From Verrucomicrobiota bacterium (GTDB lineage: Bacteria; Verrucomicrobiota; Verrucomicrobiia; Chthoniobacterales; UBA6821), in contig VHCR01000015.1 in assembly GCA_016871655.1 (NCBI GenBank), forward strand, positions 1 through 13,484: a DNA stretch of 13,484 nt, read 5' to 3'. Positions 1-13,484 of the stretch are shown here, piece after piece. The notes under the pieces were generated by a model. The model was not told the origin of the DNA and made no database searches. It was given only the letters and a program-made list of their open reading frames with translations. Positions within the stretch are counted from its first letter, which is position 1, and every line of letters begins with the position of its first letter. The position numbers and the translations under genes are program-made.

Positions 1-615
1 CGTTGCGGCGCGAGTGATCTTGCGCGTGACAAACGTCTCACCACGACGCGGACTTTCGTGATTGAATAAAATTCCATTTGAGGCATGCAGGTTGTAAGCC
101 TCGCGATAATTCACCGTCAGCCAGTACGCAAAAACTTTGGCGCAACCGTAAGGCGAACGCGGATGAAACGGCGTTGTCTCACGCTGCGGAACCTCGTGAA
201 CAAGTCCAAACATTTCCGAAGAAGAAGCCTGATAAAAACGGACATCTTGCGTGAGCCCCGCCTCGCGAATCGCTTCCAACAAACGAACCGTGCTCAATCC
301 GGTTACATCGCCCGTGTATTCCGGAATGTCAAACGAAACGCGAACGTGGCTCTGGGCACCGAGATTGTAGATTTCATCAGGCTTCAACTCATAGAGCAAC
401 TTCACCATCTGCACCGAATCCGCAAGATCGCCATAGTGTAAAAAAAGTTTCGTCCCGTTGATATGCAGATCATGATAGAGATGATCGATGCGACTCGTAT
501 TGAACGTTGAAGCGCGCCGAATCACACCATGAACCTCGTAGCCTTTCTTCAACAAGAGCTCTGCAAGATAGGAACCATCTTGCCCCGTGATACCAGTGAT
601 GAGTGCTTTTTTCAT
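1..615 (-). CDS. gmd: GDP-mannose 4,6-dehydratase, N-terminal 205 residues (runs off left edge)
   Basis: Converts GDP-D-mannose to GDP-4-keto-6-deoxy-D-mannose in the cytoplasm, the shared precursor of GDP-fucose, GDP-rhamnose and GDP-perosamine. The reading frame is open from an ATG at 613-615 to base 1 without a stop, giving 205 residues; family members are about 345-375, so roughly the C-terminal 40% lies outside the window. Visible features are the N-terminal Rossmann motif [30 protein letters not shown], the conserved [13 protein letters not shown] stretch, the catalytic SSSEMFG segment, and the [12 protein letters not shown] segment carrying the YxxxK dyad of extended short-chain dehydrogenases. 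A weak GGA lies about 10 nt upstream of the ATG. GC counted by eye over four lines is about 50%, clearly above the GT2 and membrane-protein genes to the right. Only a tRNA gene and a repeat-like element precede it, so it is separate from the big cluster. Identification is very secure. Confidence 0.95.
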
Positions 616-639
616 AAAAAAATTTCCAACTTAATAAAA

Positions 640-855
640 AGAGTCTGATCCAAATGCGCTGCTGTGAATACGTGCGGCGGGGCAGCCGCCGGATCGACTG
701 CGAAGCAGCCCCGCGGGGGCGAGCCTCGCGGGAGCGAGCGAGTTGCATGCGACACGAGGAACGCAGACCTGCAGTATATATGGAAATACTTGAGGAAGCG
801 AGCACCAAAGTGACGCAGTTCTGGGCCGCAGCAATAGCATTTGGGCAGAGTCTGA
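640..855. mobile_element. GC-rich ~198-bp element with 8-bp inverted ends and 9-bp flanking direct repeat (MITE-like)
   Basis: The nine bases AGAGTCTGA occur at 640-648 and again, in the same orientation, at 847-855. Just inside them, CCAAATGC (650-657) and GCATTTGG (837-844) are inverted repeats, followed inwards by related GCTGCTG / CAGCAAT segments. The interior (649-846) is visibly richer in G+C than its flanks and packed with small palindromes: GCGGGGCAGCCGCC near 677-692, CTGCGAAGCAG near 698-708 and CCCCGCGGGG near 709-718. No transposase is encoded. Direct repeats outside inverted ends are the signature of a transposed element, here non-autonomous. The right copy of the direct repeat overlaps the last base of the tRNA gene. 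Removing the element and one repeat joins the tRNA to a T-rich run before gmd, a sensible empty site. A TATACT hexamer at 773-778 (minus) could act as a -10 for gmd, but no good -35 accompanies it. A structured RNA is the main alternative. Confidence 0.6.
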
Positions 856-926
856 GCCGACGAGGGGATTCGAACCCCTGACCTGCTGATTACGAATCAG
901 CTGCACTACCACTGTGCTACGTCGGC
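855..926 (-). tRNA. tRNA-Thr, anticodon CGT
   Basis: On the minus strand the sequence folds into a complete cloverleaf of 72 nt. The acceptor stem GCCGACG pairs perfectly with CGTCGGC. The D-arm GCAC/GTGC has a 7-nt loop containing GG. The anticodon stem GCTGA/TCAGC encloses loop TTCGTAA, the variable loop is AGGTC, and the T-arm AGGGG/CCCCT has loop TTCGAAT. Loop position 33 is T and the anticodon CGT (plus strand 892-894) reads the threonine codon ACG. The 3' CCA is not encoded; the discriminator is T, which is unusual compared with the A of E. coli tRNA-Thr but is found in some lineages. That discriminator base is also the last base of the 9-bp direct repeat of the adjacent element. Confidence 0.96.
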
Positions 927-963
927 AATTGTCGCGCAACAAAAGTCTCGCACGCAACGAAAC

Positions 964-1747: not shown

Positions 1748-2434
1748 CTATTCTTTCCTCCATAGCTCAAACCATAAATATGAAGCTAATTTTTTACCAG
1801 TCGGCCACATTTTAAAATTTGTTTCTCCATAAACGCGAGCTACTTCCGTAGTTGGAAATTCTATTCTAGGAATTTTTAATTTATATGCTCGAATGACCAT
1901 TTCGATATCAATAGATAATCCATGATCAAGGATATTCATTTTATTAAAACATGTTTTCTTCCATCCTTTTATTCCATGAAGAACATCACGAACCCAGTAG
2001 CCTTCTCTTTTCCATATTAAGGCTGATATGCCTCCCAATAGATAGACAGCCCATTTCCGAAAACGTAACACTTTATCATCTTCTTCATTTTGTGAACCTT
2101 TGCCTTGACGACTTGCAATCACAAGCTCAAACCCTTCTTTAAAATATTCCTTAAATTTTAAAAGATCTTTAGGAGGAATTGTTCCTTTAGGAAAGAAAAC
2201 CACAACAGCGTCCCCTTTTGCTATTTCATGAGCATGCCGATATCCATTGTTAAGACCCTTCTTGGGTTGCTGATAAACAGGTATCCCTTGAGCTTCCAAA
2301 TATTCAACAGTGCCATCTGTACTACCACCATCTACAGCATAAACTTCATGAAATTCTTCTCGTGGCAAATTAGGTATGTCTATCTTACAACCTTCAAGTT
2401 CATTCCAAACTAGCAAACAAAGACTTATTTTCAT
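1748..2434 (-). CDS. GT2-type (dolichyl-phosphate mannosyltransferase-like) glycosyltransferase
   Basis: Predicted 228-residue GT-A fold glycosyltransferase that would transfer a sugar from a nucleotide donor to a lipid carrier or growing glycan at the inner membrane. Seen: the N-terminal strand MKISLCLLVWNE, the nucleotide-binding VDGGSTDGT (34-42), KKGLNNGYRHAHEIAKGD (58-75) as in DPM-like enzymes, and RDVLHGIKGWKK (149-160) matching the acceptor-loop region. The usual DXD metal site after this block is replaced by FFPKGT (80-85). One hydrophobic stretch (about 128-141) may associate with the membrane. The start at 2434 is preferred over the longer one at 2491, because the family pattern begins there, AAGG lies about 10 nt upstream, and the longer form would overlap the preceding gene by 53 nt. 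It begins 4 nt after the flavoprotein stop, so it is translationally linked. It is the last gene of the cluster. Confidence 0.85.
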   Translation of the reverse strand: MKISLCLLVWNELEGCKIDIPNLPREEFHEVYAVDGGSTDGTVEYLEAQGIPVYQQPKKGLNNGYRHAHEIAKGDAVVVFFPKGTIPPKDLLKFKEYFKEGFELVIASRQGKGSQNEEDDKVLRFRKWAVYLLGGISALIWKREGYWVRDVLHGIKGWKKTCFNKMNILDHGLSIDIEMVIRAYKLKIPRIEFPTTEVARVYGETNFKMWPTGKKLASYLWFELWRKE

Positions 2435-2438
2435 ACTC

Positions 2439-3653
2439 TTAACCTTGTGAAACAATTTCGTTAGCCATAGCCATAGCTTCTGAAACAGCAATATCGCTAT
2501 TCATGTGTTCCCATTTCCCCCATCGGCCTAATCCGTAAATTTTATTTGTCTTAGCCCATTCTAAAATTGTGTTTATGCTTTTCGGTTTTTCAAGGGTGTT
2601 TACGGGATAGGCATACTCATTGTGATGTCGAAATCCATTTGTTGGCAGCGAACGCGCTGCGTTACATTCTGTCCAATAACCACGTGATCCGGGGCAAAAA
2701 TTAGACCGCACCAACATCCTATGATAAGAAATTTTTTCTGATGGCTCATAAATCCAATGCGCTTTTGTTGGTAAATTTTTTTTCTGATAATCGACATCTA
2801 TAGAAATATTGACCAATTTTTTAATGTTCTCTCTAATCCTTTCAGGCAATGATGAATTTGCTTCTAGCCAATACATCCATGGGATTGAGGTTATGATTTT
2901 CTCAGCTTGATATGTCTTATTGATTGTTCTTGTTGTCAGATCAATGCTTGTTATTGGAGAGCTTCTTATCAATTGGCTCCCCAAAGCGCTACCCATTCTT
3001 TTCCAGACCTCCCCATAGCCATAATGTTTAGGATAAAGAAATGTCCCATGCGCAGGAAGAGTTCCACTAGCTTTCCCTTCAAGACAACTTCTAAGAGTTT
3101 CACGAAAAGAAACATTTGGAAGCTTATAAAGCCAATAAGTTCCAAGTAAATTTAGATCCATTGCCCAAATTTTGCGATTGTAAGGAAGCATATAATCATT
3201 GGCTATGCACTCTCCTAGCTTCCAGCGAATCCATTCAATAAAAGATTCAGGCATCGTCTCTCCTCGAACACTTCCTGTTTGGGCAATAGATTCCAAATAA
3301 TTAAGCTGATCTTCTCTAAAAAACTGCCAAAGATTCCCTTCTAGAGGATGATCAATTTCTTGACCTCTAAGGATGATCTTAGCTACACGATGATAGCTGT
3401 TCCATTCTTCTTGCGGCAGGAAGCGAAATAAAAAATCTAAAACTTCTTTTTTCTTAACATCCAAAAAATGACCGCCTCCAATATCAAGAGGAGCACCATC
3501 GACTATTGTTGACCGACATAGACCTCCAGCTTCAGCATTTGCTTCAAGAACAAGAAGTTCGTTTTTTGAAATGCCGAGATCAAGGAGAGAATGAGCAAAA
3601 GTTAATCCACTTGGGCCTCCTCCTAAAATTAAATATTTAATCTTTTTTACCAC
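2439..3653 (-). CDS. FAD-dependent oxidoreductase, UDP-galactopyranose mutase-like
   Basis: Predicted 404-residue cytoplasmic flavoprotein of the amine-oxidase/UDP-galactopyranose mutase class. Seen: the FAD-binding GGGPSG (11-16) after a hydrophobic strand, acidic E37 ending the second strand (LLVLEAN), the GG doublet AGGLCRS (42-48), DIGGGHF (57-63), and a C-terminal GLGRWGKWEHMNSD (374-387), the usual FAD-contacting end of this family. The length (about 400) fits mutases, which are typically 370-400. In a glycan cluster a sugar-nucleotide ring-contraction role, or a related redox modification of a polysaccharide precursor, is likely; the exact substrate cannot be read from the sequence. 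The start is GTG at 3651-3653 with no visible Shine-Dalgarno and only 4 nt after the upstream stop, suggesting translational coupling. GC is low like its neighbours. Family placement is secure, mutase activity is not. Confidence 0.85.
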   Translation of the reverse strand: MVKKIKYLILGGGPSGLTFAHSLLDLGISKNELLVLEANAEAGGLCRSTIVDGAPLDIGGGHFLDVKKKEVLDFLFRFLPQEEWNSYHRVAKIILRGQEIDHPLEGNLWQFFREDQLNYLESIAQTGSVRGETMPESFIEWIRWKLGECIANDYMLPYNRKIWAMDLNLLGTYWLYKLPNVSFRETLRSCLEGKASGTLPAHGTFLYPKHYGYGEVWKRMGSALGSQLIRSSPITSIDLTTRTINKTYQAEKIITSIPWMYWLEANSSLPERIRENIKKLVNISIDVDYQKKNLPTKAHWIYEPSEKISYHRMLVRSNFCPGSRGYWTECNAARSLPTNGFRHHNEYAYPVNTLEKPKSINTILEWAKTNKIYGLGRWGKWEHMNSDIAVSEAMAMANEIVSQG

Positions 3654-3657
3654 GATA

Positions 3658-5379
3658 TTAATTTATGTTGTTTTTATTGAAACCATTTTCCTTGGCTTTC
3701 AGAGAGTCTTGATAAGCTTTAAATCCTTTATAAATTCGAGCAGATCTGAGATCCCTATTCCAAGAAGACGGTTTACTTTCATCCGTCACAATAAGAAGCG
3801 AATCATTATTTATATCAATAAATTCTGAGGCATAAACTCCATTTCCAAACACTCGAAGTTTATGCGAATTCAAAATGGCACACCGGTATGATGAATACTT
3901 GAAGCCAAGAATAAATCGAGCATATTGAGATGCTGGCCAATAGTACGATAAAGAAGACTCAAAAATTTGAGGGAAATCTAATCCCCGCAAAACAGGAGTC
4001 CCATAGCCTATCTGAAAGTTGGGTACATAAGGGGAGTTATATGCATTAATAAACAGAATACTTGGCTCTACCATACCAACAGATGCTGTGCTGATGTGAT
4101 TCCACATTTTTTGATCTTCTTTCCTTATTGCAGGAAGACATATTAGTTGAAGCTCTAACCAAAGACCAAAAACAGTGAGGCTAAAAAAAATCGAAGGGAA
4201 AAGACCTACACATTGCCGCACTCTTGGTTCAGCAAAGAAAGAAGCTAAGAGCATTCCCAATAGTGTATAAGGAATATACCCATATCGCCTTGGAAAAACC
4301 ATGCTGATTTGCCCTGCCCCAATTGATAGAATCGTGATAATCAGAAAACTTACCACACAAGCAAGCAGAAAAAGCAACGGCACTAAGAAAACTAGCTGTT
4401 TATGATCCAACTCCTCGACACTAAGAAAGGAAGAATTTTTAAAAAAGTAAGCAATAGCTATTGCCAGAAAAATCATACAACTCATTAATCCCAAGTTTAC
4501 TTTATTTCCCACAAATATAATTATAGGAATTATTTGATCCTTAATTCCCAAGCATAATGAAACGAAAAAGATTTTGAGATTAGTAGGTAATGTTTGAATA
4601 TTTGGTAGAGAAAAATGATAGCGTGCCTGTTGTCTCGACGCCTTGGGGAGTAAGACGATCCACGTAACACGATGAAGTATTACTCCTATAATAATAGGAG
4701 CAAGTATGATTGCTAATTCTGTGGTGCGTTGCCCAAAAGATTTTTTAGATGGAGCCAGGAGAGCAGTCAATCCAAGAATGAAAATAGAGAGAGGCAAATG
4801 AGCTTCTCCTGTCCATGCGATACAACATCCAAGACTTATTAATACTAGGCGTTGCAACCAAAGTGAATAACTAGTTCTTCTTGCACATTCTGATAAAAGT
4901 TGCTGTAAAACAAGAGCTGCAACAACTGTCAGTTGGAATGGCAGAATAAGATAAGAATAGTGATGAAAGCAAAACGTAACAGAAAATGGAGAAAATATCC
5001 AAATGAATGCAATAATTAGGGCCTGAAAATAATCTATCAAAAATCCACGTAGCAATCGGTAAATAGCCCACCCCGTAATTAATTGGCTAATACCTATAAA
5101 TATTCCATAATAGATTGCCTGCGTACCAATTGAGAGAGCAAGGAGTAAATGTATGGTTCGTGACAGTCCATAAAGACGATATTCACCTGGAAGATCTAGT
5201 GAAAAAAAGATGGTTTTTAAGCCTCCAAGATGATTGTTGTGAAAAAGCTTTGGTAAATACTCCACCAAAAACAAGTCGTCATGAAATAAGCCCGCATTAT
5301 AGGCATAGACACTTATGATAAAAATTCCAAAAATACTAAAAAGCCAGTAGTATTTTTTTATTGTAAAGCAAGCAGTCAT
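3658..5379 (-). CDS. Polytopic membrane protein, GT-C-like, HDD motif
   Basis: A 573-residue inner-membrane protein of unassigned family. By eye there is one N-terminal transmembrane helix (about 11-28), then NAGLFHDDLFLVEY with HDD at 33-35 on the presumed periplasmic loop. Further hydrophobic helices lie between about 74 and 412, followed by a soluble C-terminal tail of about 160 residues. An acidic pair in the first external loop after helix 1 is the layout of GT-C glycosyltransferases that use lipid-phosphate sugar donors, so a periplasmic glycan-modifying or side-chain transferase role is inferred. The paralogue-like gene immediately upstream has HDD at the same place. The start ATG at 5377-5379 lies 18 nt after that gene's stop; no strong ribosome binding site is seen. 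Alternatives are a polymerase-like or flippase-like membrane protein. Confidence 0.6.
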   Translation of the reverse strand: MTACFTIKKYYWLFSIFGIFIISVYAYNAGLFHDDLFLVEYLPKLFHNNHLGGLKTIFFSLDLPGEYRLYGLSRTIHLLLALSIGTQAIYYGIFIGISQLITGWAIYRLLRGFLIDYFQALIIAFIWIFSPFSVTFCFHHYSYLILPFQLTVVAALVLQQLLSECARRTSYSLWLQRLVLISLGCCIAWTGEAHLPLSIFILGLTALLAPSKKSFGQRTTELAIILAPIIIGVILHRVTWIVLLPKASRQQARYHFSLPNIQTLPTNLKIFFVSLCLGIKDQIIPIIIFVGNKVNLGLMSCMIFLAIAIAYFFKNSSFLSVEELDHKQLVFLVPLLFLLACVVSFLIITILSIGAGQISMVFPRRYGYIPYTLLGMLLASFFAEPRVRQCVGLFPSIFFSLTVFGLWLELQLICLPAIRKEDQKMWNHISTASVGMVEPSILFINAYNSPYVPNFQIGYGTPVLRGLDFPQIFESSLSYYWPASQYARFILGFKYSSYRCAILNSHKLRVFGNGVYASEFIDINNDSLLIVTDESKPSSWNRDLRSARIYKGFKAYQDSLKAKENGFNKNNIN

Positions 5380-5397
5380 ATAGTTAACAAAACAAAG

Positions 5398-7398
5398 CTA
5401 ATCTTCATTGCACGTTGCTGATCTGTGTATTCTATTTAAAAAATTTAGAGACTCATGAAAAAATACCCAGCATCCTAATACAACTAACATGCTAAACTCT
5501 GGCATTACGGGAAAAAGATACCTTGGTTGAGCCCCATTCCAAGCACTAGCATCAAGCATAGCAAATAATAATATTCTCGTTATTACGGCAGTACTTAATA
5601 AAAAAATCACTACTACTAATGATGAATTACGTCTTAAAAAAACTCCCATGAAAAGACCAAGCAATGCAAGCCATTGTGCACACCCAATAATTTGGTAGTA
5701 AATTCGTTCAAACCAATCTTGAAAGTTCCAACTCCAATAGACTAAGGCTTTCGGTTGATCGAACCGATCACAAGCAAGATAGGCATCTTTTCCCTTTAAA
5801 ACTTTTTGGTTCACTTTCCCAACAATTAGCTCTTTAACCTGCCAAGTAATATGCTCTCCATCATCTGTTGAAACAATAATTTGATTTTCTAGCAACGTGT
5901 CTTGGGTGGATAGTGGAATATGAAATACAAATGCTCGTGCTTGAGGGCTAACATCATTACGAGGTTCTGTTGGAGACAATGATGCAATAATTTTTCCTGA
6001 TGAATCTGCTATCGCTATAAAAATAATTTTTCTTCCAGGAGTTAATATCCACCCATCTATATTATAACTACTTTTATTAGGAAAAGATCTTGAGCGTCTA
6101 TTTGCAATATCATCAAACTCCTTTTTTACATCATCCCCCAACATTGGTTGATCACTTTTATTCCTAACAGGCAATGAAGATGTTAAAAAGGTATTATAAA
6201 CAGATTTAAGACTATCCCTATACTTTGGCAACCAGCATGAAAAATTGGGATCTATCATAGCTATTGGAACAAAACGCTTTGGTAGCTTGCCTTGAATTAG
6301 CGCTGATCTAATTTCTTTTCCTATCTTCTTAAAAAAAGCATCTCCCTGTGCAGGGGTGGATGCATAGCCTGCCCTAGCGGCAGATTCATACAAAGCCCAA
6401 TAAAACCACCCAGCTGATATCTCTAAGGGATCAAGTGCGGTTAGTCCTTTAGAATCAGTCCATGGTTTTGAACAGCCTGCCCATCCTCTACCAACAGGCC
6501 CTTCAAGTTGTTCTTGCAAAAGAGCAAAAGAAGAACTCTCTTTATAGGCCGCCTGTCTCGCTTTTACTGTAACAGGAATATAAGCTATCTCTCTATCAGG
6601 CTTGATGCTTTGAAGGGCTTTAAAAGCCATTTTATAACCTGGAGCTGACAATATTGAAGTGGAAAATAATCCCCACCGGATGTAGTTAATAGAGCAGATA
6701 GTTAAAGTCAATGCCAGACAAGCACATAATGGCAATATCACTCCTACCCCAATTCTTTTACATACAAGCTGCCTTGTATCAGCTTTGTCTACAGCAATAA
6801 CACAAAGTGCTAATATAATAAAGATTGGCAAAAGTACGATAGCCTCTTTTCTGCTATTCCATGCTAATGCCCAAAATATAGCTGCTAAAACTGCTGGCTT
6901 AATAGCATCAAAAGTTTTTCTAGCTATCCACCATTCGAGGCTTTGAGATAGAGCTAATAAAAGAAGTGATGCAAGAAGTATCTCGGCGCCAAAGCGATTA
7001 GGTAGCTGAAAAGAAGATGGATTGAAAATAGCCGCAAGGGAAAGTACCCCGCCAACAAGTTGAGGAATACCAATACGGCATAATGTTATTGAAAGAAGAG
7101 AACAGCCAAAACAATAAAGAAGCTCCATTCCTATTCGTAAAGGAATCCCTGTAATGCTAACTATTTTAATGAATAGCGGATAAATAGGGAGATGATACAA
7201 AAAATTTGTTGCATAAGTTCCACCCCAGTACCATCGTTGGGCAGCCCATACCTGCCACAAGTCATCATGAGGAGAATATGTTCCTCTCATTTCTTCTCGA
7301 GAACAAAGTACTAACTTAGCAATGGTTAAAAATACTAACCAGCAAATAAAATATTTAGATATTGGCTTACAGCTACTTTGTTTTATTTGAAGCCTCAT
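5398..7398 (-). CDS. Polytopic membrane protein with large soluble domain, GT-C-like, HDD motif
   Basis: A 666-residue inner-membrane protein. Helix 1 is at about 16-33, followed by YSPHDDLWQVWAAQ with HDD at 44-46, a Trp/Tyr-rich loop and LPIYPLF, as in GT-C transferases. Several helices follow to about 240. A soluble segment of about 320 residues (245-565) includes a beta-rich portion around NIDGWILTPGRKIIFIAIAD that looks like an immunoglobulin-like sandwich. Three C-terminal helices (about 567-656) contain QPRYLFPVMPEF, a typical GT-C-type ending. I infer a lipid-linked-sugar-dependent transferase acting on the periplasmic face. Its ATG (7396-7398) lies only 8 nt from the end of the 162-bp palindrome, and its upstream leader has no clear Shine-Dalgarno. 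A seven-codon frame starting in the palindrome (ATG at 7413-7415) ends in an ATGA overlap with this start. Confidence 0.6.
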   Translation of the reverse strand: MRLQIKQSSCKPISKYFICWLVFLTIAKLVLCSREEMRGTYSPHDDLWQVWAAQRWYWGGTYATNFLYHLPIYPLFIKIVSITGIPLRIGMELLYCFGCSLLSITLCRIGIPQLVGGVLSLAAIFNPSSFQLPNRFGAEILLASLLLLALSQSLEWWIARKTFDAIKPAVLAAIFWALAWNSRKEAIVLLPIFIILALCVIAVDKADTRQLVCKRIGVGVILPLCACLALTLTICSINYIRWGLFSTSILSAPGYKMAFKALQSIKPDREIAYIPVTVKARQAAYKESSSFALLQEQLEGPVGRGWAGCSKPWTDSKGLTALDPLEISAGWFYWALYESAARAGYASTPAQGDAFFKKIGKEIRSALIQGKLPKRFVPIAMIDPNFSCWLPKYRDSLKSVYNTFLTSSLPVRNKSDQPMLGDDVKKEFDDIANRRSRSFPNKSSYNIDGWILTPGRKIIFIAIADSSGKIIASLSPTEPRNDVSPQARAFVFHIPLSTQDTLLENQIIVSTDDGEHITWQVKELIVGKVNQKVLKGKDAYLACDRFDQPKALVYWSWNFQDWFERIYYQIIGCAQWLALLGLFMGVFLRRNSSLVVVIFLLSTAVITRILLFAMLDASAWNGAQPRYLFPVMPEFSMLVVLGCWVFFHESLNFLNRIHRSATCNED

Positions 7399-7591: not shown

Positions 7592-10500
7592 CTAACGTGT
7601 TATCCCCTCTACATGAGTCATCTCAATTTGGTATCCCTCTTTTTCTACAACGAAAGGAATAATTCTTTCTAATGCATGCAAGATAGTTCCATCAATAGGG
7701 AGTGGCTCTTCGGGATAATCTTGATAAGTTAGCTTTAAGTCTAATAGCGGCTTCAGAGCAACCGTTCTAGCCCAGAACATAGTGCCTACAGGAAAATTAA
7801 ATTGCTCATAAAATTTATCAATACCTAGCCGTAGAAGAAGTTCTTTTCCTATAGCTCGATTTTGATCCCACGCATTAGTATAAGGATCGCTAGGGAAAAC
7901 CAATCCTATCTTTTCATCTTCTGCGAGAGCCTCGACAATAATGTCTGCCATAGGCAAACGCCCTCCAAGAAGATTTTCCAAAAGAAATTCACGCCACTCT
8001 TTTGCAATGGAATCTGCCACATGAACACTCTTTTTTGTGTGTAAATGCCCAATAATATCATATTGAGCGATAAGAGATGTTCCAAACTCTGTCAAAAATG
8101 CTCCGATATCTCTTCCTTTATTTTTGACAATGCGTATTTCTACTTTTGCTTGATAGCCTCTTAGTTTTTCTACAATTGCTCTAGTGTCTTGAATGGAGTT
8201 AGCAATGGTAATTAATAAGTCAGGTTTGACTTGATTTAGTTCTAAGCGATCCATGATCTCCATGAATAAATCTTCATAAAAAACATGAATATGTAAGCCA
8301 ATCCGCAAGCTTGAAGGAATGGTTCTTTCCTTTTTTATTTTACTTGAAAGAAGGTTTACATTCCAACGTCCTTTCGGTTTCCCTGCTTGAAGAAAATGAT
8401 GGAAAGGATCTGTTCTATCTTCAGGGCTCATGCAATCTTCTTTATAAATACCAGGGTGAAATCCAGGAATTGGTTTTTTTCCATAATCACAGGGCCATGA
8501 CCAACCTTTTTCGGGAATAACTTTCTCCACAATATTCTGCACTAAAGGAATCGACTTTATCACATTTCTTGTTTTATGGGGCAATAGCTTGCTCATTCTC
8601 GCAAAACACTTCATCCCCTTAGATAGATAAGGAATAACTTTTAATGGCGGAGAATCTGCTAGATCAACTGCTGAAGCTAATCTTGACGAGGCTAATTCTG
8701 AGGCTATTTTTTTGGCATACTTTTTGAAGGAAAATTCTTCTCGAACAAAACTAGAACAACCTTGAAAGTCAATTTGATGAATCGCTTTTGCTAAGACAGC
8801 GCATGCTGAATTAATGTCAAAATTGTTTGCCTCATAATACGATTCTGGAGGAAAAACTCCCTCAACTCCTGTAGCTCCAGAAAAAAGGACTATGGGAACA
8901 TTGTAGCCTGCAGCTATCAAAGCAACCAAGGGAAAAGGATCCTCTCTCGAAGAAAGAAAAAAAACATCTGCTGCTGCAATAACTTCTTCTACGTTGGGTC
9001 TCTCATTTAAAAAGATAAAATACTTCCTAATATTTTTAGGAATCGTTGCAATTTGGTTCATTGCATAATCGCAACCAAAATAAGTTCCAACCCAGAGGAA
9101 TATTGGTATTGGTTGATTTCTCTGCATTGAGCCCAAAATAGATTTCTCTCCTGCCTGAATGAATAGATCAAATCCCTTGCGATGGTCATACGCCCCACAA
9201 CCAACAATTAAAATGGTATTATTAGGCAGCTTTATTTCGTTTAAAAATTTTTCCCTTAATAAAAGCCTTTCTGTTTTAGGATATGCAAAACTTACGCACG
9301 GATGAATAATACAGGTTTTTTTCTCATCAATTTTGTATTCTTCGAAAGCTTGTTTATAGGTTAAAGAAGAGGGAAATATCAATCGTTGCGAGTACTGATC
9401 AAAAATTTTCATCGTCGCAGCTCCGCCGAACCATTTATTGATAGAAGCCGGCATTTCGTAAATAAGCGAAACAATGTTGAATCCTCTCCGCCCAAAAACC
9501 GCCACAGTTTCTTTACTGTCAACCGTACTACATAAACAAGTGACCTTATGCTTCGAAGAAGCAAGATGCTCTGCAATCCATTCAAAATATTTGGTATTAA
9601 CTGCAGAACTTGTAAAAGTTTTTCCTGAAGGATCTCCTAGAACAAGTGTCTGACACACCCTTTGGTAATCAGGAAGCAAAGGCCCTCCGCGTTTTAAAAT
9701 TGTAATAAGATGCAATTTTGGATCTTGCGATAAATGTCTTATGATTCCTAGAAGAGCTATAGGCGCGCCAGTCCGCAAGGCTTCATGCCCAAAAACTAAA
9801 ATTACTTGTTTGTCTTTAGGAAAAGGGAGGTTTGCTTTTAAAAAGTTAGAGATACGTTGGCAATCTTTTTCTTTCTTATCATGCTTTCCTCGACGCATAA
9901 AATGGACAACAGGAGAAAACTCACTTCTCTTGAGGTCATTATTTTCTTGAAGATAACTAGCTACATCAACATGTGAATTGGGGGCGCGTCCTTCATACAT
10001 GCCATGCAATATAAAATGTACAAAAGGATTAACCTTGGCGCTCTTCACATCTACGTTTTGTTCTAAATACCAATTTGTATGAAACAATGGGCCGGGGTTT
10101 CTTCCTTCGGCAGCTCCTGAATTGATGTAATGCAAAATGGGATCAACTCTCGCATTCTTCACATCAGGATTTTTTTCTAAATACCATTGCCGATCAAACA
10201 AGTTACTTCGGCCTATAAGATACGCAATGAGATGTCTTTCAAAAGGTGTTTTGAGTCGCTCGATGAGGTTTAATACTTTCAAATTGTATTGCAGGCTTTT
10301 ATTATTTTTTATCTTGAAAATTAATTGATCACTTTCAACGAGTTGGCGCTCTTTTCCAGCCAATAAAATATCTTTTTGATGAAGGAGATTTTCTTTTTCT
10401 GTTAGCGATGCATTTTTCTCTGCAATGATCGCTATTTGTTTTTGAAGCTGATCTTCTTTTTCTAAAACGAGATCTCTTTGTTGTTCCGTCAACTTTTCCT

Positions 10501-11347
10501 GTTGAAGAAATTCTTCTTCTTTTTGACGAAGTTGTTTTTCTATTTCATGAAGAATTATTGTTTGGCTTTGCGCGAGATTTGAACTTTCCTCGGCAATTCT
10601 TTTTTGCTCTTCAAGTTCTAATTGGTTTTTGTGCAATGAATATGTTAACTCATAATTCATGCCTAATTTTTGAAATAATCGATTAAAGCTTGAAGTGTGA
10701 AAGTTTTCTTTTTCTATCTCGGCAATTTTTTTTAAAAATGGCTCTCTCTCTTTTCCGACTAACAGAACACCAAGTCCATGAGAGTGTGTAAAGTTAAACC
10801 CAGGATATTGAGTCAGCAATTCTTCCCACAGTTGATACACGCCAAAGTTGTTTTCTTTTACACAAGTGTCATGAAATAAAACAACGCCCTTTTTAGAAAG
10901 TTTTGGCAGCCACATTTCAAAGTCATGCTTGACTGCTTCGTAGGTATGCAAACCATCGATGTGAAGCAAATCAATAGATCCGTCAGAAAATTGATGAACA
11001 CCCTCATCAAAGGTCATTCTCATCAAAGTTGAGAACTGGCTGTAATGCTGATCATGATATTTTTTAAATTTTAAATAAACTTCGTCGTCGTAAAATCCTG
11101 CCTGATCATCTCCTTTCCACGTATCAACAGCGTAAGCTCTTGTTGTAAGATCATTCTTTTTAATAGCTTCACAAAAAGCGCTATAAGAAATTCCATTGTG
11201 AGTACCAAGTTCTACAATTGTTCGTGGTTTTAATAGACTAATGATCCAAAATGCAAAAGGGATATGCCCGTACCATGCGGAAAGATCATGATCTCTGCTC
11301 AAATCGCAACATGCCGAGGATAAATAGGGAATCGCTAGACCATCCAT
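7592..11347 (-). CDS. Multidomain glycan assembly protein: methyltransferase, coiled coil, repeats, GT4, RgpF-like
   Basis: Residue numbers are from the alternative ATG at 11362; the preferred start is residue 6, giving 1251 aa. A class I SAM-dependent methyltransferase spans about 36-205 (VELGTHNGIS motif, LLHIDGLHTYE, GVVLFHDT). A coiled coil spans 240-350. Two exact 38-residue tandem repeats (389-426 and 427-464, each with WYLE..PDV-like and H(Y/F)I...G..EGR elements) are followed by a degenerate third (465-498). A GT4-type GT-B glycosyltransferase spans about 516-895 (GHEALRTGAP, then DHRKGFDLF, and SREDPFPLVALIAAG). A fourth repeat-like piece (968-1001) precedes an RgpF-like domain (1018-1256; VKNKGRDIGAF, HLHTKKS). 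It is likely a cytoplasmic, membrane-associated enzyme that builds and methylates a rhamnose-type polymer. The start at 11347 is chosen because GGGAG (11356-11360) sits 8 nt upstream, whereas the earlier ATG overlaps the wzt stop. Confidence 0.9.
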   Translation of the reverse strand: MDGLAIPYLSSACCDLSRDHDLSAWYGHIPFAFWIISLLKPRTIVELGTHNGISYSAFCEAIKKNDLTTRAYAVDTWKGDDQAGFYDDEVYLKFKKYHDQHYSQFSTLMRMTFDEGVHQFSDGSIDLLHIDGLHTYEAVKHDFEMWLPKLSKKGVVLFHDTCVKENNFGVYQLWEELLTQYPGFNFTHSHGLGVLLVGKEREPFLKKIAEIEKENFHTSSFNRLFQKLGMNYELTYSLHKNQLELEEQKRIAEESSNLAQSQTIILHEIEKQLRQKEEEFLQQEKLTEQQRDLVLEKEDQLQKQIAIIAEKNASLTEKENLLHQKDILLAGKERQLVESDQLIFKIKNNKSLQYNLKVLNLIERLKTPFERHLIAYLIGRSNLFDRQWYLEKNPDVKNARVDPILHYINSGAAEGRNPGPLFHTNWYLEQNVDVKSAKVNPFVHFILHGMYEGRAPNSHVDVASYLQENNDLKRSEFSPVVHFMRRGKHDKKEKDCQRISNFLKANLPFPKDKQVILVFGHEALRTGAPIALLGIIRHLSQDPKLHLITILKRGGPLLPDYQRVCQTLVLGDPSGKTFTSSAVNTKYFEWIAEHLASSKHKVTCLCSTVDSKETVAVFGRRGFNIVSLIYEMPASINKWFGGAATMKIFDQYSQRLIFPSSLTYKQAFEEYKIDEKKTCIIHPCVSFAYPKTERLLLREKFLNEIKLPNNTILIVGCGAYDHRKGFDLFIQAGEKSILGSMQRNQPIPIFLWVGTYFGCDYAMNQIATIPKNIRKYFIFLNERPNVEEVIAAADVFFLSSREDPFPLVALIAAGYNVPIVLFSGATGVEGVFPPESYYEANNFDINSACAVLAKAIHQIDFQGCSSFVREEFSFKKYAKKIASELASSRLASAVDLADSPPLKVIPYLSKGMKCFARMSKLLPHKTRNVIKSIPLVQNIVEKVIPEKGWSWPCDYGKKPIPGFHPGIYKEDCMSPEDRTDPFHHFLQAGKPKGRWNVNLLSSKIKKERTIPSSLRIGLHIHVFYEDLFMEIMDRLELNQVKPDLLITIANSIQDTRAIVEKLRGYQAKVEIRIVKNKGRDIGAFLTEFGTSLIAQYDIIGHLHTKKSVHVADSIAKEWREFLLENLLGGRLPMADIIVEALAEDEKIGLVFPSDPYTNAWDQNRAIGKELLLRLGIDKFYEQFNFPVGTMFWARTVALKPLLDLKLTYQDYPEEPLPIDGTILHALERIIPFVVEKEGYQIEMTHVEGITR

Positions 11348-11360
11348 AAACTTTACTCCC
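11348..11360 (-). promoter_or_regulatory. Ribosome binding site deciding the start of the multidomain gene
   Basis: GGGAG at 11356-11360 on the minus strand, 8 nt before the ATG at 11345-11347, is the best Shine-Dalgarno in the cluster. It lies inside the last codons of wzt, and the earlier in-frame ATG (11360-11362) overlaps it, so initiation at the second ATG is favoured. Confidence 0.6.
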
Positions 11361-12747
11361 ATTTTTTAAACACAACTTCTCTCATTGGAATTCCCACCAC
11401 CCCACTGCAGACGCTGGTCGCATCGGATCTCAATGGGAGCGCATGATGGATCCAGTGATGTTGGACATGTTGATGCTGCGTTCCGTTGGCGATGGCAACT
11501 TCGATGCTGTAATTTCCTTTGGCGAGTCGAGGCATTTGAAAATGAAATTGAGCGATGAGTTTGTCGCCTGAGTGGCATTCTTGTGGGTCGTCATGGTAAG
11601 AAAGAAAAGTATTCTCGCCAAATAAAATTTGCCCCAGATAATCTTTTAAATGAAAACCGACAATCGGAGCCTCTAAGTTTTCATGGCATTCTGCCTCAAT
11701 TTGTAGAACAACCTCCTCCCCGCCTACAATCCAGCTGAGAGGACTGTGACTTGCATCCAGAAGTTGCACGCCGATAATTTTTGCTCCACTTTTTCCAAAC
11801 GCAGCTGCCTCAGGATTAAATTGAAAAACTTCAATATCGTTTCGCAAATTTGTGTGATTGATCCAATCTAGACGTTGGTCTTTGAAATTTTGTACTTCTC
11901 TTTTTTGAGGAGGTTGCGAAAAGGAATTTATTTTTGTTGTTTTCTCAATTTTACTTTCCCCTTGCTGTGCCTCATAAAGATTTTCTAAATAAAGTTCTGA
12001 AATTTCTTTAGGACTTCCCTCCGCCATCATCCCTCCTTTTTCCAATAACACGGCTCTGTTGCAAATGCTTTTCACAGCAGCCGTATCATGACTGACAAAA
12101 ATCAATGTACGCTCTTTGATGAATTCTCGAATGAAGCGCATGCATTTTTGTTGAAAAAAAGCATCTCCTACTGAGAGTGCTTCATCGATAATTAAGATGT
12201 CAGCATCGACATGTGCCATAACAGCAAAGGCTAAGCGGACTGCCATTCCGCTTGAATAGGTCTTCACGGGCTGGTTGATAAAATCGCCGATGTCGGCGAA
12301 GGCTTTAATTTTTTCAAAGCGGTCCTCGATTTCTTTACGAGTGAGACCGAGGATTGAGGCGTTTAAGAAAACATTTTCGCGGCCCGTGAACTCAGGATTA
12401 AAACCGCTGCCTAGCTCTAGCAAAGCGGCGACACGCCCGTGAACCGAAACGGAACCTTCGGAGGGTTGAAGCGTCCCGGCAATGATTTGTAGTAATGTCG
12501 ATTTTCCAGAACCATTTTTTCCAATGATCCCAATCGATTCTCCTTTTTTGATTTCAAAAGAAATATTTTTGAGTGCATAAAACTCGCTGCAAAGTCCGTG
12601 CAGCTTGGCATCAATTTTTTTGCGAAGCGGTGGAAAGAGCTCTCCAGCTAAATTCAAGAGCGGATGCTTCAACCGCGCTGCAGGATCACGCCAGATCGTG
12701 TAGGCCTTGGAAACATTGTTGATAGAGATGGCGATTTCTTGAGGCAT
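11353..12747 (-). CDS. wzt: Wzt-type ABC transporter ATPase with C-terminal glycan-binding domain
   Basis: A 464-residue ATPase that powers export of an undecaprenyl-linked polysaccharide across the inner membrane with Wzm. Seen: Walker A GKNGSGKST (76-84), the family-typical ELGSGFNPEFTGRENV (111-126), ABC signature YSSGMAVRLAFA (164-175), Walker B DILIIDEA (183-190) and the switch histidine VSHD (H220). After a polar linker (about 258-300), residues 300-464 match the beta-sandwich carbohydrate-binding domain found in Wzt proteins that recognise a modified chain end, as in E. coli O9a. The length is typical of the two-domain form, not the short KpsT/TagH form. It starts 5 nt after wzm. Its stop region supplies the Shine-Dalgarno of the downstream multidomain gene, implying coupled translation. 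Somewhat higher GC than the middle of the cluster. Identification is secure; the exported glycan is unknown. Confidence 0.95.
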   Translation of the reverse strand: MPQEIAISINNVSKAYTIWRDPAARLKHPLLNLAGELFPPLRKKIDAKLHGLCSEFYALKNISFEIKKGESIGIIGKNGSGKSTLLQIIAGTLQPSEGSVSVHGRVAALLELGSGFNPEFTGRENVFLNASILGLTRKEIEDRFEKIKAFADIGDFINQPVKTYSSGMAVRLAFAVMAHVDADILIIDEALSVGDAFFQQKCMRFIREFIKERTLIFVSHDTAAVKSICNRAVLLEKGGMMAEGSPKEISELYLENLYEAQQGESKIEKTTKINSFSQPPQKREVQNFKDQRLDWINHTNLRNDIEVFQFNPEAAAFGKSGAKIIGVQLLDASHSPLSWIVGGEEVVLQIEAECHENLEAPIVGFHLKDYLGQILFGENTFLSYHDDPQECHSGDKLIAQFHFQMPRLAKGNYSIEVAIANGTQHQHVQHHWIHHALPLRSDATSVCSGVVGIPMREVVFKKWE

Positions 12748-12752
12748 GATTT

Positions 12753-13484
12753 TTACAAGACATCAGCAAAAGCCGATTTCACTTTCATAAAAAAAGCATA
12801 GCCGATTGTAGCAACAAAAAAACTTATCAAAATTTGAAGCGCGAGCGTTCCCCAATGAGGCAATGCGCCAAAGACCAAAGCATTTCGCGCCATCGAAATT
12901 AAGACAGCGCCTGGATTTAACATCATAACCCAACGCCAAGCTTGAGGAATCGCAGTCATTGGAAAAAAGATGGCGCTTGCGAACATCAAAACTGTAATGA
13001 TTGCAGGCATCGCTGCTCCAATATCGCGTAAAAAAACGCCTAAAGCAGAAAGCATCCAAGTCAATCCCAAGCAGTAAAGAACTACGGGAACGAAAATCAA
13101 AATCAGCGTGAGTGCTGAGAGCGAGATAGTTCCTTGAGAAATGATGATCAACAAAAGAAGCGGAGTAAATCCGATGAGCGTATGAACTAGCGCCGACAAG
13201 ATCATGGCGATCGGCAAAATTTCCAAAGGGAAAATGACTTTCGTTACCAAGTTAGCATTGTGCACGATCAACATTGGGGCTCCTGCAAAGGCGCTAGCAA
13301 TCAACTCCCAGACAAGCATTCCACAAAAAAGTCCGAGCACAAATTGCATTTTGGTTTCTCCTGGATGCCCATAAGATCCTCGAAAAATAAAACCAAAAAC
13401 GATGCTGTAAACAGCCAGCATGAGGAGCGGCGTAAAAAAAGACCAGCAGAGGCCGAGTAACGTTCCTTGATAACGTTGTTGAAC
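12753..13484 (-). CDS. wzm: Wzm-type ABC transporter permease, N-terminus cut by right edge
   Basis: Membrane subunit of the polysaccharide ABC exporter. The frame stays open through the right edge: 243 residues are visible before the TAA. The first residues (QQRYQGTLLGLCWSFFTPLL) are the conserved pre-helix-1 region of ABC-2 type permeases, usually about 20-30 residues from the true N-terminus. The in-frame ATG at 13419-13421 is therefore internal and not the start. About six hydrophobic segments are visible. These include the segment with LVWELIASAFAGAP, the loop VTKVIFPLEILP, the amphipathic ALGVFLRDIG, and a last pair ending near ISFFVATIGYAFF. A loop FFPMTAIPQAWRWVMMLNPG precedes the last pair and is typical of O-antigen/capsule permeases. 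It sits 5 nt ahead of wzt and forms the functional pair with it. Promoter and true start lie outside the window. Confidence 0.93.
   Translation of the reverse strand, partial: VQQRYQGTLLGLCWSFFTPLLMLAVYSIVFGFIFRGSYGHPGETKMQFVLGLFCGMLVWELIASAFAGAPMLIVHNANLVTKVIFPLEILPIAMILSALVHTLIGFTPLLLLIIISQGTISLSALTLILIFVPVVLYCLGLTWMLSALGVFLRDIGAAMPAIITVLMFASAIFFPMTAIPQAWRWVMMLNPGAVLISMARNALVFGALPHWGTLALQILISFFVATIGYAFFMKVKSAFADVL

What the first reader, a model, noticed from the sequence alone, without database searches (positions are those of the whole stretch)
7592..11347. One polypeptide may merge chain terminator, length ruler and polymerase next to Wzm/Wzt
Seen: a methyltransferase domain, then a coiled coil of about 110 residues, then repeats, GT4 and RgpF-like domains, encoded right after a Wzt with an apparent C-terminal glycan-binding domain. 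Known: in E. coli O9a, WbdD caps the chain by phosphorylation/methylation, its coiled coil sets chain length, WbdA is the separate polymerase, and the Wzt C-terminal domain reads the cap. Inference: here these parts lie in one chain, physically tying polymerisation to capping. I do not know whether exactly this arrangement is already described.
Basis: partly seen in the sequence, partly recalled or inferred. Interest (0 to 1): 0.72.

Follow-up and report, generated by a model that had tools for sequence, protein, structure and literature searches.

The report
Sugar-chain builder fused to its cap-maker
One bacterial protein appears to build a surface sugar chain and to cap its end with a methyl group that the neighbouring export pump then reads; the design is known from other bacteria, but related gene clusters suggest that cap-maker and cap-reader are swapped together.

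Summary
ORF 7592-11347 (-) encodes a Methyltransf_24 O-methyltransferase, a predicted long helix, repeats, a GT-B/GT4 module and an RgpF module, 5 bp after a Wzt with a Wzt_C domain. The idea is in print: K. pneumoniae O12 WbbB, O7 ORF6 and G. stearothermophilus WsaE already join terminator and polymerase in one chain. The architecture is common: 101 of 120 listed homologues carry all three Pfam domains. No kinase was found, so a plain methyl cap is expected, unlike O9a.

New support: the Wzt reader domain follows the cap module. Same cap, other polymerase: 43% identity (48 pairs); same polymerase type, sulfotransferase-like module: 16% (56 pairs), although those polymerases are nearly as alike as within one cap type. 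The window reader is nearest the Aquifex reader of 3-O-methyl caps and keeps its methyl-stacking Trp. In a same-genus genome, reader and whole fused protein are both replaced.

Unproven: ruler function, chemistry, and GT4 activity, whose second acid is lost. New variant of a known kind.

The parts
7592..11347 (-). fused terminator-spacer-polymerase protein (1251 aa from the ATG at 11347; ORF extends to 11362, 1256 aa)
10748..11320 (-). methyltransferase domain, residues 15-205 (Methyltransf_24); SAM motif E51-G53-G57, D80; motif with D136, H139 and D165
10370..10690 (-). single predicted helix, residues 225-331 (confident to about 320), proposed ruler
   Evidence: COILS-like 249-330
9923..10246 (-). 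short (F/W)YL...HY...G..EGR repeats, residues 373-480
8708..9817 (-). GT-B/GT4 module, residues 516-885; Tyr at 635, Ser at 612, Ile at 816 (second acid of the motif)
7595..8479 (-). RgpF module, residues 962-1256; the 14 residues checked are invariant in 61 of 61 rows, window included
11353..12747 (-). Wzt: NBD plus C-terminal cap-reader domain (Wzt_C residues 315-452, Trp432)
12753..13484 (-). Wzm, 5' end beyond the window
   Evidence: 72% identical to G005 Wzm

Best explanation
The protein is a one-chain glycan assembly machine for an ABC-transporter-exported, probably rhamnose-containing surface polysaccharide. The C-terminal glycosyltransferase modules (RgpF, perhaps with GT4) extend a lipid-linked chain at the membrane. 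The helix, about 14-16 nm long, holds the N-terminal methyltransferase away from them. When the non-reducing end reaches the methyltransferase it is O-methylated directly, without phosphate. This stops growth and creates the epitope that the C domain of Wzt reads before Wzm exports the chain. Shown here: anatomy, predicted folds, motif conservation, gene order, and correspondence of reader type with cap-module type. Inferred: methyl cap, rhamnose, ruler action and order of events.
For: Domains and folds. SAM-type motifs kept. The Wzt C domain follows the cap module: MT24 loci with different polymerases 43% (48 pairs, 24.5-53.7%); MT24 against SULF loci with the same polymerase type 16% (56 pairs, 12.4-19.2%); NBD 60% and 55%. 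Pairs aligned singly agree: 145 against 23 bits, ranges not overlapping. The polymerase domains themselves do not separate so: RgpF 47% within MT24 and 42% to SULF, GT4 36% and 39%; the cap label needs 6 and 5 changes on their quick trees against 3 on the Wzt-C tree and 2 on the NBD tree. MT24 modules on other polymerases (L048, L049, L070, L098, L099) have the same reader type. Window reader: best solved matches are the Aquifex-type CBD chains (E 2.6e-10), against 0.0031 for 2r5o. The residue at the Trp that stacks on the methyl in Aquifex is Trp in 14 of 14 MT24 readers and Arg in 7 of 7 SULF ones. Same-genus G001: Wzt NBD 68% identical to the window, C domain 20%, but 50-52% to Caballeronia, whose terminator module G001 also shares (44% over 617 aa). 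rmlA- and rmlC-like genes lie upstream of wzm in G005, rmlB- and rmlD-like genes downstream in G001.
Against: No chemistry or glycan structure is known to me for any MT24 member examined. The GT4 module lacks residues kept in 57-58 of 61 aligned rows, so it may not polymerise. Heptad evidence is modest. Only 5 of the 11 one-ORF MT24+GT4+RgpF loci among 80 have a C-domain Wzt within 200 bp upstream, and 4 of 11 have no Wzt in the DNA held. In G001 the polymerase half is changed as well (31% to the window, 34% to L034), so that case does not separate cap from polymerase. Reader and cap module are neighbours in the DNA and could move as one block. The rml genes are not in the window, which shows a partial gmd.
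Confidence: 0.72

Rival explanations
1. The methyltransferase decorates sugars along the chain or on side branches and is not a terminator; Wzt-C reads something else, and the helix is a mere linker.
For: Methyltransf_24 is a broad O-methyltransferase family, and the fold is nearest to many small-molecule methyltransferases. No product is known. Four of 11 one-ORF loci show no Wzt in the DNA held.
Against: The methyl-stacking Trp is kept in 14 of 14. In the K. pneumoniae systems discussed in PMC11231755 the terminator lies at the far end of the coiled coil.
Confidence: 0.15
2. The C-terminal half is not the repeat-unit polymerase but a single-linkage or adaptor transferase with a dead GT4 domain; elongation is done by other proteins, and the protein is terminator plus scaffold.
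For: Tyr635, Ser612 and loss of the second acid at 816 in the window; P0002 and P0003 share Tyr and Ser and have Ile and Thr at 816. The G001 locus holds a second GT4-RgpF protein.
Against: The RgpF residues checked are all kept. No second RgpF-type match at E<=0.001 in the 86.7%-complete genome. The GT4 fold is intact in the model and 70% identical to G005, so it is maintained.
Confidence: 0.3
3. Cap module and Wzt-C are co-inherited as one stretch of DNA, without molecular recognition between them.
For: The C domain of Wzt and the N-terminal cap module are usually adjacent in the DNA, so one exchange can replace both. The NBD tree also sorts by cap type.
Against: The pairing holds where the two are not adjacent: L048 (opposite strands), L070 (two ORFs between), L026 (Wzt between two MT24 genes). 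Reader class agrees with the nearest solved readers of methyl and methyl-phosphate caps.
Confidence: 0.17

Closest known systems
WsaE of Geobacillus stearothermophilus NRS 2004/3a (passages of PMC2943079 and PMC3898925)
   Same: N-terminal O-methyltransferase plus two rhamnosyltransferase domains in one chain, right after wzm and wzt; methyl cap on a polyrhamnan, predicted to be bound by Wzt
   Different: Gram-positive S-layer glycan. Sequence relation not tested (WsaE not in hand). [quoted passage not shown]
ORF6 of Klebsiella pneumoniae O7 (abstract, passages and part 1 of 2 of the Discussion of PMC11231755)
   Same: N-terminal methyltransferase, coiled coil and two C-terminal GT modules in one chain, in a cluster with wzm, wzt, rmlC and rmlD; termination shown experimentally
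   Different: Has a kinase and a predicted CBM domain and makes a methyl-phosphate cap; GT2 modules instead of GT4-RgpF
WbbB of K. pneumoniae O12 (as described in PMC11231755; the primary paper, Williams 2017, seen only in its reference list)
   Same: Terminator, coiled-coil ruler and polymerase in one polypeptide of an ABC-transporter system
   Different: The terminator is a beta-Kdo glycosyltransferase, not a methyltransferase
WbdD/WbdA of E. coli O9a and O8 (passages of PMC3482155; PMC11231755)
   Same: Methyltransferase on a coiled-coil protein ends the chain; the Wzt C domain reads the end. O8 WbdD methylates sugar hydroxyls directly and lacks a kinase
   Different: Polymerase is a separate protein; O9a adds phosphate first
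Aquifex aeolicus Wzt-CBD (passages of PMC9445017)
   Same: Nearest solved reader domain to the window Wzt-C; methyl-stacking Trp kept
   Different: Of the pocket residues, Leu300, Thr346 and His350 are His, Glu and Ala in the window by the alignment, so the capped sugar may differ

Membership tests
Terminator-coupled, ABC-transporter-dependent glycan assembly | Wzm/Wzt pair next to the assembly genes | tested here: met
   synteny in G005
Terminator-coupled, ABC-transporter-dependent glycan assembly | Wzt carries a C-terminal cap-reading domain | tested here: met
   Wzt_C E 3.5e-35; solved CBDs matched E 2.6e-10; binding itself not tested
Terminator-coupled, ABC-transporter-dependent glycan assembly | Cap-forming catalytic domain at the far end of an extended coiled coil | tested here: inconclusive
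Terminator-coupled, ABC-transporter-dependent glycan assembly | Active polymerase modules | tested here: inconclusive
   RgpF residues kept, GT4 residues altered
Terminator-coupled, ABC-transporter-dependent glycan assembly | Exported chain bears the terminal modification; helix length sets chain length | not testable with these tools
   needs glycan analysis
WbdD of E. coli O9a | Kinase domain between methyltransferase and coiled coil | tested here: not met
   No kinase family at E<=0.1; about 20 residues between fold and helix
K. pneumoniae O7 ORF6 type | Methyltransferase-kinase plus CBM before the coiled coil, GT2 modules after | tested here: not met
   GT4 and RgpF instead
K. pneumoniae O12 WbbB type | Kdo glycosyltransferase terminator | tested here: not met
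   N-terminal domain is Methyltransf_24
WsaE | O-methyltransferase, then two rhamnosyltransferase domains, in one chain directly after wzt | tested here: inconclusive
   Order and position match; sequence relation and sugar specificity not tested

The most novel reading that the evidence does not exclude
Cap-making module and Wzt reader domain form a transferable matched pair that is exchanged, across phyla, on a common GT4-RgpF chassis: methyl (Methyltransf_24, Trp reader), methyl-phosphate (methyltransferase plus kinase-like region, O9a-like Arg reader) and a sulfate cap not found in the papers searched (sulfotransferase, Arg reader). One residue at the Aquifex Trp362 position would predict neutral or anionic caps from sequence.
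Probability: 0.4. Interest if true: 0.66.

Novelty: new variant of a known kind. Interest (0 to 1): 0.46.

Why it matters
If right, the cap chemistry and export specificity of many unstudied surface glycans can be predicted from sequence, with the cap module and the Wzt reader as two separate readouts. The contrast between two genomes of one genus gives a clean test of cap reading by Wzt. The predicted sulfate-terminated chains would add a cap type. The fused MT24 proteins, with 205-366 residues between methyltransferase and GT4 in nature, give a natural length series for testing the ruler model in a one-chain system.

Tried and rejected
O9a-type phosphorylation plus methylation: rejected for the window because no kinase domain was found. 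A first home-made heptad score found no coiled coil even in the window and was dropped for a COILS-like score with MTIDK weights recalled from memory; that score depends on composition, so it is not leaned on. Widening the context survey within the window's phylum failed: 13 of 387 genomes hold the polymerase at E<=1e-30. A plasmid search gave 54 records, none covering 80% of the query, and was not followed. The RgpF fold was not identified: the 50 Foldseek rows shown for the second model are GT-B enzymes matching the GT4 module. Literature: in the listings I saw no paper on a sulfotransferase chain terminator. In passages of PMC4483657 a 216-aa sulfotransferase-domain protein of unknown role is listed between wzt and wbbB in Aeromonas. 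In the listings I saw no paper on the MT24-RgpF arrangement; only PMC11231755 and others already cited came up as relevant. The library holds open-licence papers only. Rows dropped: L090 (718-aa Wzt) was left out of the 25 Wzt candidates. My sulfotransferase profile hit 14 of 66 GT4-RgpF ORFs; for 5 of these 14 (L028, L041, L050, L066, L071) Pfam found nothing at E<=0.001 in the N-terminal 300-400 residues, so they are not counted as sulfotransferases.

Mended: number of RgpF residues (14), confidence of the helix end, one coordinate, the G001 case (its polymerase half is changed too), the adjacency of reader and cap module (rival raised from 0.12 to 0.17), and a new control on the polymerases.
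Full report
WHAT IS THERE. The protein begins 5 bp after the stop codon of wzt. In 1256-aa numbering Pfam finds Methyltransf_24 (50-166), a GT4 catalytic half (716-830) and the C-terminal half of RgpF (1005-1244); Wzt has Wzt_C (315-452) and Wzm follows, cut by the window end. The first AlphaFold model (residues 1-560, mean pLDDT 83.5) shows a methyltransferase fold, one unbroken helix 225-331 (confident to about 320, weak beyond), then helical repeats. 96-107 residues at 0.15 nm each would be about 14-16 nm (my arithmetic). The second model (360-1256, mean pLDDT 83.7) shows a GT-B fold for GT4 (best match MshA 3c4q, E 9.4e-16) and a separate alpha/beta RgpF domain.

POLYMERASE HALF. All 14 RgpF residues I checked are invariant in 61 of 61 rows, the window included. 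GT4 is different. Residue 635 is Tyr (His in 57 of 61 rows), 612 is Ser (Asn in 57), 689 is Cys (Gly in 58), and the second acid at 816 is Ile (Asp or Glu in 57; Ile in the window and P0002, Thr in P0003, Ala in P0109). The module is still conserved within the genus (70% to G005), so it is not simply decaying, but its catalysis is in doubt.

HOW COMMON. A protein search scored 7998 candidates and found 1409 homologues at E<=1e-3; 101 of the 120 listed (the window's own protein included) carry Methyltransf_24, a GT4 domain and RgpF together (counted by eye). In 11 of 80 one ORF holds all three modules. Of these 11, five have a Wzt with a window-like C domain within 200 bp upstream on the same strand, one has it 986 bp away on the other side, one has only a short Wzt-like NBD, and four have none in the DNA held. 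In L025 the methyltransferase part (308 aa) and the GT4-RgpF part (813 aa) are separate neighbouring ORFs. The distance from methyltransferase to GT4 ranges over 205-366 residues in the 13 rows (window included; L004 and L023 appear to be the same genome). The 3.5-residue periodicity beats 95% of shuffles in 23 of 48 MT-containing ORFs tested. Between window and G005 the methyltransferase is 80% identical, GT4 70% and RgpF 73%, but the helix is 51% with gaps and the repeats 52% with a 39-residue loss.

READER FOLLOWS CAP. The same GT4-RgpF chassis carries other N-terminal modules: sulfotransferase families and Methyltransf_11/12/23 types. Of the 7 'SULF' loci used, 5 pass a Pfam cut-off (L031, L032, L057, L069, L095) and 2 are below it (L035, L061). 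Conversely, MT24 sits on other polymerases: GT2+GT2+GT4 (L037, L048), WbsX+GT2+GT4 (L099), GT2 (L098) and weaker GT matches (L049, L070). I compared 24 of 25 Wzt candidates: 14 MT24 including the window (7 of them Pfam-confirmed, the others by my profile), 7 SULF and 3 MT11. MT24 with another polymerase: C domains 43% identical (48 pairs, 24.5-53.7%). Same polymerase type but MT24 against SULF: 15.8% (56 pairs, 12.4-19.2%). The NBDs give 60.3% and 54.9%. Pairs aligned singly give 145 and 23 bits for C and 310 and 268 for the NBD, and leaving out the window's genus changes little (147.5 and 23.2 for C). The loci mix phyla and classes. As a control, the polymerase domains do not split this way: RgpF is 47% identical within MT24 (56 ordered pairs) and 42% between MT24 and SULF, GT4 36% and 39%; the cap label needs at least 6 and 5 changes on the RgpF and GT4 quick trees, against 3 on the Wzt-C tree and 2 on the NBD tree. 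So the cap module seems to have changed several times on this chassis while reader type stayed with it. Against: the NBD also differs by cap type (none of 2000 label permutations reaches the observed difference), reader-side events are few, and the trees were quick ones whose branch support I did not weigh. In L048 Wzt is on the other strand, and in L070, L102 and L026 it is not immediately upstream.

A CONTRAST WITHIN THE GENUS. In the same-genus genome G001 the locus keeps Wzm (71%), a UGM-like protein (77%), a GT2 (82%) and a membrane protein (65% over 440 residues). Its large protein, however, starts with a Methyltransf_12/23 domain and shares 44% over 617 residues with the N-terminus of the Caballeronia protein L034. 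Its Wzt NBD is 68.3% identical to the window's while its C domain is 20.2% identical to the window's and 49.7-52.1% to Caballeronia's. The polymerase half of the G001 protein is also distant (31% to the window, 34% to L034), so here reader and whole fused protein are changed; this case alone does not separate cap from polymerase. The G001 N-terminal stretch looks kinase-like to me by eye; no tool confirmed it.

WHAT THE READERS RESEMBLE. The window C domain best matches 8dky and 6o14 (E 2.6e-10 and 3.3e-10), and 2r5o only at 0.0031. Profiles: 14 MT24 readers, Aquifex-type chains E 6.5e-19, 2r5o 5.5e-7 and 5hno 1.4e-4; 7 SULF readers, 2r5o 2.2e-8 and 8dky 7.8e-5; G001 with L033 and L034, 2r5o 1.6e-23 with no Aquifex-type chain at E<=10. 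That 2r5o is the O9a domain is recalled. That 8dky/6o14 and their full-length kin are Aquifex is recalled and agrees with seven residue identities named in PMC9445017, with an offset of one. In Aquifex Trp362 stacks on the 3-O-methyl group (passages). The aligned residue is Trp in 14 of 14 MT24 readers and in L045, and Arg in 7 of 7 SULF readers and in L033 and L034. That Arg suits an anionic cap is inference. Nearest-structure similarity thus agrees with module content: methyl for MT24, methyl-phosphate for the methyltransferase plus kinase-like type.

SUGAR. Upstream of wzm in G005 lie galE-like, rmlA-like and rmlC genes; in G001 rmlB- and rmlD-like genes lie downstream. With RgpF this points to L-rhamnose. 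The window itself shows only a partial gmd, past a tRNA gene.

COMPARISON WITH WHAT IS KNOWN. PMC11231755 (abstract, passages and part 1 of 2 of the Discussion) states that O12 WbbB joins polymerase, ruler and terminator in one polypeptide, and shows that O7 ORF6 joins methyltransferase-kinase, coiled coil and two GT modules. PMC2943079 (passages) describes WsaE as methyltransferase plus two rhamnosyltransferases, with wzm, wzt and wsaE having overlapping start and stop codons. Export reading by Wzt-C is established (passages of PMC9445017 and PMC11127046). The window therefore works like this known kind without matching any one prototype: no kinase (unlike O9a and O7), no Kdo transferase (unlike O12), and a COMT-like methyltransferase with GT4-RgpF.

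VERDICT. What is added is the comparative evidence that cap module and reader travel together, a residue-level rationale, and a testable prediction of sulfate caps in relatives.

Noticed in passing
window 1748-7398: Downstream of the fused gene: two large membrane-like proteins without Pfam match (666 and 573 aa), a UDP-galactopyranose-mutase/PRK07208-like flavoprotein and an AglJ-like GT2. They look to me like a set for adding sugars outside the membrane from lipid-linked donors (compare passages of PMC11127046); a G001 membrane protein in the matching place has a weak PMT_2 match.
   Followed up: partly
window 1-957: tRNA-Thr (CGT) at 854-926 beside a truncated gmd, with GC 52% in the first kilobase against 35-44% elsewhere: a likely edge of the glycan island.
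   Followed up: no
L031, L032, L057, L069, L095; also L030, L060: Sulfotransferase domain fused N-terminally to the same GT4-RgpF polymerase; in the first five a Wzt of 394-486 aa lies nearby. A possible sulfate-type chain terminator, not seen in the listings of the papers searched.
   Followed up: partly
L105:5516-7915: The G001 locus has a second, shorter GT4-RgpF protein (800 aa) after the GT2 gene; the window lacks it.
   Followed up: no
L045:6807-9902: A separate 1032-aa protein with two Methyltransf_11-type domains beside Wzt, whose reader keeps the Trp: perhaps another methyl cap.
   Followed up: no
L103:12840-14264: In G005 a 475-aa protein fuses Methyltransf_23 to a GT2 upstream of the rml genes.
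   Followed up: no
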